64,000 nt of DNA from Staphylococcus capitis subsp. capitis (GTDB lineage: Bacteria; Bacillota; Bacilli; Staphylococcales; Staphylococcaceae): NCBI RefSeq assembly GCF_040739495.1, contig NZ_CP145263.1:744001-808000 (forward strand), written 5' to 3'. Positions within the stretch are counted from its first letter, which is position 1; every line of letters starts with the position of its first letter. This document shows positions 60,603 to 64,000 of this stretch, piece by piece. The notes under the pieces were generated by a model. The model ran no database searches. It had not been told where the DNA came from and saw only the letters and a program-made list of their open reading frames with translations. Made by a program: the position numbers and the translations under genes.

Positions 60603-61751
60603 ATGTCGGAAAAATTCTATAGATCAACCTATTTAAATGTTAATTTAGATGCAATATTAAACAATTATCAAATATTCAATCAGTTACATCATAACAAGAC
60701 TGTTATATCAGTCATTAAAGCTAATAGTTATGGATTAGGTAGTGTAAAAGTAGCACATCACCTAATGGAACATGGGGCTTCGTTTTTCGCAGTTGCAACA
60801 CTTGATGAAGCAATTGAATTAAGAATGCATGGAATTGATGCAAAAATACTAGTCTTAGGTGTCATTCCAACTAAAGACATAAGTAAAGCTATTCAACATC
60901 GTGTAGCTCTTACTGTACCTTCAAAAGCTTGGCTTAAAGAAGCTATTAGAAATATACCTGAAAAAAATGAGAAAAAACTTTGGTTACATGCCAAAATAGA
61001 TTCTGGTATGGGTCGATTAGGTATGAAAGATGTTGAAGAGTATAAAGATGTTGTTGATATAATTAATAAAAAAGATGATCTTGTATTTGAAGGCGTGTTT
61101 ACACATTTCGCTAGCGCAGATGAACCAGGGGATTCTATGAATGAACAGTATGAATTTTTTAAAGATATTGTTAATCAAGTAGAAAAACCAAATTACATTC
61201 ATTCACAAAACTCTGCAGCTTCTTTATTAATGGATGGACAATTTTGTAATGCGATTAGATTAGGTATCTCATTATATGGGTATTATCCTTCACAATATGT
61301 TAGGGATAATGTCAAAGTACATCTTCGCCCAAGTGCTCAACTCGTTACTGAAATAGTACAAGTGAAATCTCTTAAAGTTGGCGAAACTGTGAGCTATGGA
61401 CGTACTTTTACAGCTGATAAAGAAATGAAAATTGCTATACTACCAGTTGGATATGCTGATGGTTATTTAAGAGCTATGCAAGGTGCTTATGTGAATGTTA
61501 ATGGCCATCAATGTGAAGTGGTAGGTCGGGTTTGTATGGATCAGACTATAGTGAGCGTGCCTGATGATGTGAAGATGGGAGACAAAGTGATATTGATGGA
61601 TAATCATATAGATTCACCACAGTCCGTTGAGTCTCTAGCTGAAAAGCAACATACAATCAATTATGAAGTATTGTGTAACTTATCAAAACGTTTACCAAGA
61701 ATCTATCACCATAATGAAGAACAAATGGTTACGAACGATTTGTTAAAATAG
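60603..61751 (+). CDS. alr: Alanine racemase
   Basis: A 382-aa fold-type III PLP racemase. The PLP lysine is K39 ([11 protein letters not shown]) and the second catalytic base is Y265 (ETVSYGRTF). It supplies D-alanine to Ddl (53265) and to teichoic acid alanylation. The start ATG follows AAGGAGGACCTTTTC. The mazEF genes lie downstream with a separate ribosome site. Confidence 0.96.
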
Positions 61752-61839
61752 TATAGTCACTGCGTTAAAAATTTGTTATTATAAACATAAATTAAAGGTT
61801 AAATAACAACTTTTTTGGAATCAGATGGAGGTTCTTCAT

Positions 61840-62010
61840 ATGTTATCTTTTAATCAATCTAGGAGTCACAGTCTTGAACAATCATTAAAAGAAGGCTATG
61901 CACAAATGGCCGATTTAAACCTCTCCCTAGCAACGGAAGCTTTTCCCATCGAATGTGAAGCTTGCGATTGTAATGAAACATATCTTACTTCTAACTCTAA
62001 GAATGAATGA
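61840..62010 (+). CDS. mazE: Antitoxin MazE
   Basis: A 56-aa antitoxin matching the staphylococcal MazE type: [49 protein letters not shown]. The N-terminal part is helical and the acidic C-terminus binds MazF. I chose ATG 61840 with GATGGAGG upstream; the five preceding codons overlap that site. It overlaps mazF by four bases. The sequence is almost identical to what I recall from S. aureus. Confidence 0.95.
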
Positions 62011-62363
62011 TTAGAAGAGGCGATGTTTACTTAGCTGATTTATCACCAGTTCAAGGGTCTGAACAAGGGGGAGTAAGACCTGTTGTAATTATACAAAATG
62101 ATACTGGTAATAAATATAGTCCAACTGTCATAGTTGCTGCTATTACAGGTAGGATTAATAAAGCGAAGATACCAACCCATGTAGAAATTGAAAAGAAAAA
62201 ATATAAGTTAGATAAAGACTCTGTTATCTTACTTGAACAAATTAGAACACTAGATAAAAAACGTTTAAAAGAGAAGTTGACCTATTTGTCTGAAAGTAAG
62301 ATGAAGGAAGTTGACAACGCCCTAGATATCAGTCTAGGATTACATAATTTTGACCATCAATGA
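62007..62363 (+). CDS. mazF: Endoribonuclease toxin MazF
   Basis: A 118-aa toxin that cuts mRNA at UACAU-like sites in S. aureus. Family marks: [42 protein letters not shown] and [13 protein letters not shown]. The frame is intact, so the pair looks functional. The start overlaps mazE (ATGA). In staphylococci mazEF is the first part of the sigB locus. Confidence 0.96.
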
Positions 62364-62741
62364 TTATAGCGTTTTATATGTAGTTAACATAAATAAAATA
62401 ATGAATTTAAAGACAATAACTTTATAATAATTATAACTCTTAATTAACTAGGTAACTTAGACCGATTGCTTACATCAAGAATTTTTTGCAAATCAAGACT
62501 AGTGCTACCTCTCATTAGTTAAATAGCATATAATTATAGTTATTATGTAAATACATTTATTATAAAAGAATGTCTTGAGTTTTACGGCTTTAGGTATTCC
62601 AATCCTAAAGTCTTTTTTAGATATTAAGAAACTGTGGCTTTTTAGTTATTTGCTATTCATTTTATAGATAAAAAAGAATTCCAAAAAGTACCAGATTAAA
62701 AGCATATGGAATTGTGAATTGGAAGTAAGGAGGCACATCTT
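62364..62741. other. Region between mazF and rsbU with a possible structured RNA
   Basis: There is no gene. Bases 62444-62522 can fold into a nested structure: TTAACTAGGTA pairs with TACCT and TAGTTAA, with an inner GATTGC/GCAAATC helix (62464-62469 and 62488-62494). A terminator follows at 62586-62619. The rsbU promoter should lie after it, but I see no strong consensus. Confidence 0.4.
62586..62619 (+). terminator. Terminator between mazEF and rsbU
   Basis: A 9-bp stem, one G-U pair (62586-62594 with 62604-62612), is followed by TTTTTTA. It should partly separate mazEF transcription from the rsbU operon. Confidence 0.75.
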
Positions 62742-63743
62742 GTGGAAGAATTTAAGAAAGATTATATGGAACTTGTAAAAGAAAGTTTAACTACTGAAAA
62801 CCGAACGCAACTTATAAAAAAGTGCGAAGAATTTACAAATTAAGTAATTAAAAAGGATTTACTGCCAGAAGATATTGTAGAAATTCATAAATCATATATT
62901 AACCAATTAGATTTAGAAGAAAAAGAAATACTCGGTACATTAGATGTCCTTCAAGAGGTAGTAAAAGGATTCGGTTATAGTTATAGAGATTATCAAAGAT
63001 TAGTTAATAAATTACAAGTTCACGACAAAGAAATTGATTTGGCTTCTAGACTTCAGCAAACTATGCTTAAAACAGATATACCTCAATTCGATAGTATACA
63101 AATCGGTGTAATTTCCGTTGCGGCTCAAAAGGTAAGTGGCGATTATTTTAATTTAATTGATCATAAAGACGGAACTATGAGTTTCGCTGTTGCGGACGTT
63201 ATCGGTAAAGGTATACCTGCTGCTTTAGCTATGAGTATGATTAAATTTGGAATGGATTCATATGGTCACTCTCAATTGCCTAGTGATGGTTTAAAGCGTC
63301 TTAACCGAGTTGTCGAAAAAAACGTCAACCAAAATATGTTTGTAACGATGTTTTATGGCTTGTATGAAGAAATGAATCATCTTTTATATTGTAGTTCTGC
63401 AGGGCATGAGCCTGGTTATATTTATCGAGCTGAAACAGAACAATTTGAAGAGATTGACGTTCGTGGGCGTGTACTTGGAGTAAGTCAGAAGACTCGATAT
63501 AATCAACAAGAGATACCTATTTATCTCGAAGATTTAATAATTATCTTTACTGATGGTGTAACTGAGGCACGAAATAGAGAAGGTGAATTTATCGATAAAG
63601 ATAAATTGTTAAATTTAATACAAAAATATAAACATATGCATCCACAAGATATAGTTCAAATTATTTATGAAGGAATTTTAAAAGTTCAAAATCCTAGTAG
63701 AAAAGACGATATGACAATTTTAATTATAAAAAGAGTAAATTAA
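62742..63743 (+). pseudogene. rsbU: rsbU with premature stop (sigma-B activator phosphatase)
   Basis: The frame from GTG 62742 (ribosome site AAGGAGG, eight bases upstream) to TAA at 63743 is 333 codons, the usual RsbU length, without insertion or deletion, but codon 34 (62841-62843) is TAA. The reading around it, EEFTN-stop-VIKKDLLPEDIVEIH, follows the family, where I recall glutamate at the stop position; GAA to TAA is one base. The PP2C phosphatase domain (about 120-333, VSGDYFNLIDHKDGTMSFAVADVIGKG...DGVTEARN) is intact. No ATG or GTG restarts the frame; the first alternative is TTG 63039. RsbU dephosphorylates RsbV to free sigma-B. Confidence 0.9.
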
Positions 63744-63844
63744 TTTAAATAATTTAGATTAAAGTTTCAAGTCGTAGGGTATACATATTTTTGAACACAA
63801 ATGTAGAAATGAAGCAGATTTGATAAAGACTAGGAGTGTATCGA

Positions 63845-64000
63845 ATGAATCTTAATATAGAAACTGTAACTCATGACGATTATTATGAAGTTAAAGTTGG
63901 CGGAGAATTAGATGTATATACAGTGCCTGAATTAGAAGAGGTACTTGTACCAATGCGACAAGAAGGGACTCATGACATTCATGTTAATTTAGCTAACGTA
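63845..64000 (+). CDS. rsbV: Anti-anti-sigma factor RsbV (partial, cut by window edge)
   Basis: The first 52 codons of RsbV: MNLNIETVTHDDYYEVKVGGELDVYTVPELEEVLVPMRQEGTHDIHVNLANV, a STAS-domain protein. When dephosphorylated by RsbU it sequesters RsbW and frees sigma-B; the phosphorylated serine lies beyond the edge. The start has TAGGAGTG ahead of it and is 101 bases after the rsbU frame. Confidence 0.95.
   Translation, partial: MNLNIETVTHDDYYEVKVGGELDVYTVPELEEVLVPMRQEGTHDIHVNLANV

What the first reader, a model, noticed from the sequence alone, without database searches (positions are those of the whole stretch)
62742..63743. rsbU carries an in-frame nonsense codon; the sigma-B pathway may be broken in this strain
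The 333-codon rsbU frame is intact in length but has TAA at codon 34 (62841). The rest of the frame keeps a normal PP2C domain. In S. aureus rsbU loss (as in the 8325 lineage) sharply lowers sigma-B activity and changes stress resistance, pigment and biofilm. Here a single base change (GAA to TAA) would explain it. A weak internal TTG (63039) would remove the first 99 residues. The mazEF genes upstream and rsbV downstream look intact.
Basis: partly seen in the sequence, partly recalled or inferred. Interest (0 to 1): 0.85.

Follow-up and report, generated by a model that had tools for sequence, protein, structure and literature searches.

The report
Broken stress-switch gene in Staphylococcus capitis
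This skin bacterium's genome carries a stop signal early in rsbU, the gene that turns on its general stress response, so that response is probably weak in this strain; such losses are already known in related staphylococci.

Summary
The rsbU frame (62742-63743) has TAA at 62841-62843, codon 34, behind a good ribosome-binding site. The host is probably Staphylococcus capitis. Intact 333-aa proteins, 99% identical to the post-stop part, exist, so the stop is a lesion of a strain or lineage, not of all relatives. The post-stop part shows no relaxed selection, which suggests a recent event. rsbV, rsbW and sigB downstream are intact, and a sigma-B-type promoter-like site before rsbV is kept. Best reading: RsbU is lost, RsbV stays phosphorylated, RsbW holds sigma-B, and the stress regulon is low. 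Expression was not measured and reads were not seen.

rsbU loss is known in S. aureus (8325, KS26; PMC6748969), so this is a new member of a known kind. One addition: of 108 Staphylococcaceae species genomes, 3 have a broken rsbU and 4 others a damaged sigB, while the inhibitor gene rsbW shows no lesion that I count. The comparison is small and was chosen after the fact, but it is a testable warning about reference strains.

The parts
62727..62733 (+). ribosome-binding site AAGGAGG of rsbU, 8 nt before the GTG start
   Evidence: sequence; same in three aligned relatives
62742..62843 (+). first part of rsbU: 33 codons and the internal stop
   Evidence: no Pfam match on its own at E 0.01
62841..62843 (+). 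internal stop codon TAA (codon 34)
   Evidence: a sense codon in P0001-P0004 and P0008
62844..63743 (+). rest of the rsbU frame, 299 codons: end of RsbU_N domain (PF08673) and whole SpoIIE/PP2C domain (PF07228)
   Evidence: under purifying selection
62862..62864 (+). CTG in frame (codon 41) with AAGGA 4 nt before it: weak candidate for restart of translation
   Evidence: inference
63039..63743 (+). internal TTG ORF of 234 aa, no ribosome-binding site seen; phosphatase domain only
61825..62010 (+). small ORF of 61 aa at the mazE place
   Evidence: no Pfam match at E 0.01; named by place
62007..62363 (+). mazF, intact, PF02452
62586..62618 (+). hairpin of 9 pairs followed by six U between mazF and rsbU, probably the terminator of mazEF
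   Evidence: the consensus scan reported 0 terminators (its loop limit is 8, this loop has 9)
63757..63782 (+). sigma-B-type promoter-like site GATTAA-N14-GGGTAT before rsbV
   Evidence: like sites at the same place in L114, L118, L150, none found by the pattern in L151; consensus recalled
63845..64000 (+). rsbV, start of the gene (continues outside the window; STAS domain)

Best explanation
In this S. capitis strain rsbU is a recent pseudogene. Translation from the GTG at 62742 ends after 33 residues, inside the N-terminal domain, so no working phosphatase is made. RsbV stays phosphorylated, RsbW keeps holding sigma-B, and sigma-B genes such as asp23 are expressed at a low level, although rsbV, rsbW, sigB and their promoter-like site are intact. 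Shown: the stop, the intact neighbours, the intact relatives, no relaxed selection after the stop. Inferred: loss of RsbU activity, low sigma-B output, recent origin. Why the lesion was kept is open; growth in culture or within a host could both favour it.
For: Stop and frame. Good start site upstream of the stop, poor ones downstream. 33-aa product has no Pfam domain, phosphatase lies wholly after the stop. Intact 99%-identical proteins. Post-stop part: dN/dS 0.027; 3 nonsynonymous and 41 synonymous codon changes on this branch, 2 and 38 on the S. caprae branch. rsbV, rsbW, sigB open. In S. aureus, rsbU lesions lower asp23 and pigment (PMC6748969, passages).
Against: No reads and no expression data. 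The source strain is unknown. A restart at the CTG of codon 41 or the TTG of codon 100 is not excluded. Sigma-B need not depend on RsbU alone (title of Palma and Cheung 2001, seen in a reference list).
Confidence: 0.8

Rival explanations
1. The stop is a base error of the assembly or of the sequenced stock.
Against: It is a substitution-type difference in a non-homopolymer codon, while the usual long-read errors are length changes (recalled); the genome is 99.99% complete with 4 contigs.
Confidence: 0.1
2. A shortened RsbU is made from a start after the stop (CTG 62862 or TTG 63039) and keeps sigma-B partly active.
For: AAGGA lies 4 nt before the in-frame CTG, 18 nt after the stop. The phosphatase domain is whole. 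The post-stop part is under purifying selection, though that is also expected if the stop is recent.
Against: CTG is a rare start and the spacing is short; the TTG has no ribosome-binding site. In B. subtilis the N-terminal domain and linker carry dimerisation and activation (PMC12143880, passages).
Confidence: 0.07
3. Sigma-B is kept active without RsbU by another route in this strain.
For: rsbV, rsbW, sigB, the promoter-like site before rsbV and an asp23-like gene with an exact sigma-B-type promoter are kept.
Against: If the stop is recent these would look intact anyway. The search of the genome with the post-stop part gave one match at E 0.001, so no second RsbU.
Confidence: 0.03

Closest known systems
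rsbU deletion of S. aureus NCTC 8325 / 8325-4
   Same: natural rsbU lesion in one strain with the rest of the operon kept; asp23 low (PMC6748969, passages)
   Different: 11-bp deletion there, nonsense codon at residue 34 here; other species; no expression data here
S. aureus KS26, stop codon in rsbU
   Same: premature stop in rsbU (PMC6748969, passage)
   Different: other species; place of that stop not seen
IS256 insertion in rsbU of S. epidermidis
   Same: rsbU lost in a coagulase-negative staphylococcus (title of Conlon 2004 in reference lists)
   Different: insertion, not a stop; paper not seen
Listeria monocytogenes MQ140025, rsbU Q317 stop
   Same: strain-specific rsbU stop that lowers SigB; faster growth at 30 C (PMC13068326, passages)
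   Different: late stop; effect not significant at 37 C; Listeria has the stressosome and RsbT

Membership tests
rsbU, activator phosphatase of the rsbUVW-sigB locus | RsbU_N and SpoIIE/PP2C domains in one frame | tested here: met
   in the 299-codon part after the stop (RsbU_N from profile position 29)
rsbU, activator phosphatase of the rsbUVW-sigB locus | directly before rsbV, rsbW, sigB and after mazEF | tested here: met
rsbU, activator phosphatase of the rsbUVW-sigB locus | one open frame that makes the full protein | tested here: not met
   TAA at codon 34: a pseudogene of rsbU
natural rsbU loss-of-function strains (8325 type) | rsbU lesion absent from other members of the species | tested here: met
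   three 99%-identical intact entries, without species names
natural rsbU loss-of-function strains (8325 type) | rsbV, rsbW, sigB intact | tested here: met
natural rsbU loss-of-function strains (8325 type) | low asp23 expression | not testable with these tools
   needs RNA or protein measurement
S. capitis type strain DSM 20326 as source of the window | crtN split by a frameshift of two nucleotides, icaD missing (PMC10570620, PMC9669719, passages) | tested here: not met
   crtN is split here too but the length change against S. caprae differs, and an icaD-like frame is present (named by recalled sequence). The paper's statements may rest on annotation, so the source is left open

The most novel reading that the evidence does not exclude
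Sigma-B activation is lost again and again in reference strains across the Staphylococcaceae, by independent lesions in the activating genes rsbU and sigB and not in the inhibitor gene rsbW, so that stress, pigment and biofilm traits described from reference strains are skewed towards sigma-B-negative behaviour. Growth without stress, in collections or at isolation, would be the selecting force.
Probability: 0.4. Interest if true: 0.55.

Novelty: new member of a known kind. Interest (0 to 1): 0.33.

Why it matters
This genome should not be taken as the wild-type picture of S. capitis stress response, pigment or biofilm until sigma-B activity is measured. If the wider count holds (7 of 108 species genomes with a lesion in rsbU or sigB), about one reference strain in fifteen may be sigma-B damaged, which is easy to test by resequencing and an asp23 assay.

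Tried and rejected
Stop fixed in the species: not supported, intact 99%-identical entries exist. Long decay of rsbU: rejected, no excess of amino-acid changes after the stop. Source strain = type strain DSM 20326: not supported, not excluded. Link between a sigma-B lesion and a crtN lesion: 53 of 108 genomes had a CrtN-like match at E 1e-50; crtN looked broken in G000 and G114 only; of the three sigma-B-damaged genomes with crtN (G000, G025, G010) one is broken; Fisher p 0.11, no claim. Rfam match in 61700-64000: none at E 1.

Rows set aside or corrected. G127 alr is cut by a contig end whose last bases look like a sequencing adapter (adapter recalled), not counted as a lesion. rsbW stops listed for nine genomes, all nine of genus g9, were taken as natural ends: the matches end 6 to 9 residues before the end of the query, and in seven named Macrococcus and Macrococcoides loci (L085-L091) of 73 loci the frame ends at the same place, residue 146 to 148; the g9 rows themselves were not inspected residue by residue, and that g9 is this group is an inference. 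G032 tex starts at residue 69; counted as a control lesion only in the second binomial test. In one search my first threshold missed two sigB lesions (L044, L059) that one search found in the same loci. Seven tex rows flagged were not counted there: one (L047, S. xylosus) is a real split, the others stop at the end of the fetched stretch (inferred from the flank length). In one search nine loci of G handles on the reverse strand (L008, L012, L014, L016, L018, L019, L020, L027, L031) were read in the wrong direction; they were ignored, and their genomes are covered. Of the 80 named loci, six Planococcus loci (L106-L111) were left out. rsbV was checked in 73 named loci only (0 flagged), not in the 108 genomes.

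Full report
What is there. The frame 62742-63743 on the + strand is rsbU. It starts with GTG behind AAGGAGG and has TAA at codon 34. [quoted passage not shown] The window is one place in a 2.48-Mb genome of 4 contigs, and a search with the post-stop part gave one match in that genome.

Host. The nearest RsbU of a named species is S. caprae at 95% (records of the window's own genome or very near it may be left out there). The alanine racemase next door is 98% identical to a protein named Staphylococcus capitis and 100% to two unnamed entries, while S. caprae (G002) is at 86%. I take the host as S. capitis. Whether it is the type strain DSM 20326 I cannot say. That strain is unpigmented with a broken crtN and is said to lack icaD (PMC10570620 and PMC9669719, passages). 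Here crtN is broken too, by an early frameshift and a later in-frame stop, but the length change against S. caprae differs and an icaD-like frame is present.

Not in all relatives. Three full-length proteins of 333 aa, 99% identical over the post-stop part, stand in the protein collection (P0001-P0003, 982 proteins at E 1e-60, the best 120 listed). They equal the window in residues 2-33, have a sense codon at the place of the stop, and differ at three residues each after it. Their sources give no species name. No entry with this stop could be seen, since such collections seldom list a broken gene.

Recent. Against S. caprae the post-stop part has dN/dS 0.027, like rsbW (0.032) and sigB (0.021). 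With G114 as outgroup, 3 nonsynonymous and 41 synonymous codon changes fall to this genome and 2 and 38 to S. caprae. There is no sign of decay after the stop.

How it should act. RsbU removes the phosphate from RsbV; RsbV then binds RsbW and frees sigma-B (PMC13068326 and PMC6748969, passages). In B. subtilis the N-terminal domain (1-81) holds the dimer and the linker (82-112) passes the signal to the phosphatase (PMC12143880, passages). A 33-residue product has none of this. The TTG at codon 100 has no ribosome-binding site and would lack that domain and part of the linker, by B. subtilis numbering. A CTG at codon 41 with AAGGA 4 nt before it is the likeliest of the other candidates. rsbV, rsbW and sigB are open, and a sigma-B-type site lies before rsbV (63757-63782), with like sites in S. 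caprae, G114 and S. pasteuri but none found by the pattern in M. lentus. An asp23-like gene (PF03780) lies behind an exact sigma-B-type site; that exact pattern occurs 5 times in the genome against 2 for the reversed control, so exact matches alone are only weakly above background. I therefore expect RsbW to hold sigma-B and its regulon to be low. This step is inferred, not shown.

Wider survey. Of 108 Staphylococcaceae species genomes, all with an rsbU match, rsbU is broken in 3: this one, G025 (S. pasteuri DSM 10656, stop at residue 215) and G076 (Mammaliicoccus lentus NCTC 12102, frameshift). Full-length S. pasteuri RsbU of other entries is in the collection. sigB is damaged in 4 others: G035 (stop, residue 137), G096 (stop, residue 32; same contig as L059, S. 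edaphicus CCM 8730), G024 (frameshift near residue 64) and G010 (11-residue deletion near the C-terminal end; same contig as L044, S. nepalensis CCM 7045). No genome has both. rsbW has none that I count, alr none that I count, tex one or two. If lesions fell by gene length alone, 7 of 8 (or 7 of 9) in rsbU plus sigB would have p 0.002 (or 0.006). This is weak evidence. The genes were picked after the finding. alr and tex may be under stronger constraint. One lesion is an in-frame deletion of unknown effect. Reads were seen for none. Most species genomes are probably type strains in any case (recalled), so no excess in collections can be claimed. In the 74 named loci that I scored, 2 had a broken rsbU and 2 of 73 a damaged sigB, with 0 of 73 for rsbV, rsbW and mazF.

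The direction, activators lost and inhibitor kept, fits reports that a Listeria rsbU stop gave faster growth at 30 C (not significant at 37 C) and that rsbW mutants arose instead under acid selection (PMC13068326, passages), that S. aureus sigB mutants arise in biofilms (PMC3640034, passages), and that rsbU changes arise within hosts and on passage (PMC6748969, passages).

Known or new. rsbU loss in a staphylococcal strain is known. I found no report of this stop in S. capitis: 13 papers hold both 'Staphylococcus capitis' and 'rsbU', of which I saw passages of three, none of them on a broken rsbU. The listings showed none by title or abstract start (one search lists 12 of 124), and (sigB, loss-of-function, staphylococci, genus-wide, rsbU) gave no paper. 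The library holds open-licence papers only, so absence there is not absence in print.

Noticed in passing
window 62586-62618: A hairpin with a U run between mazF and rsbU, its sequence conserved in four aligned relatives, folding better than 198 of 200 shuffles. A simple hairpin scan hit 53 of 74 named loci: 39 with a CTTTAG stem, 9 Salinicoccus with a GACTTTTG stem, 5 unrelated. No Rfam match; one search's terminator scan found none. Probably an old terminator that insulates rsbU from mazEF.
   Followed up: partly
L115 5644-7170: crtN of this genome is broken twice: an early frameshift and a later in-frame stop; crtP, crtQ, crtM and a crtO-like frame are open (gene names partly recalled). Intact crtN-like genes exist in most matching relatives.
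   Followed up: partly
L146, L147, L148, L149: sigB damaged in four other species genomes: two stops, one frameshift, one 11-residue deletion.
   Followed up: partly
window 60603-63743 and L113: Synonymous divergence from S. caprae is much higher in alr (1.55) and rsbU (1.27) than in rsbW (0.46) and sigB (0.56) next to them. Recombination or stronger codon constraint could explain it.
   Followed up: no
L152 end: The alr-side end of this 7.7-kb contig ends in bases that look like a transposase adapter (recalled), which makes alr look truncated in that genome.
   Followed up: no
P0005: A 333-aa RsbU from a 1.4-kb contig equals this strain's RsbU up to residue 233 apart from the stop position, then differs at 25 residues: a recombinant or a chimeric assembly.
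   Followed up: partly
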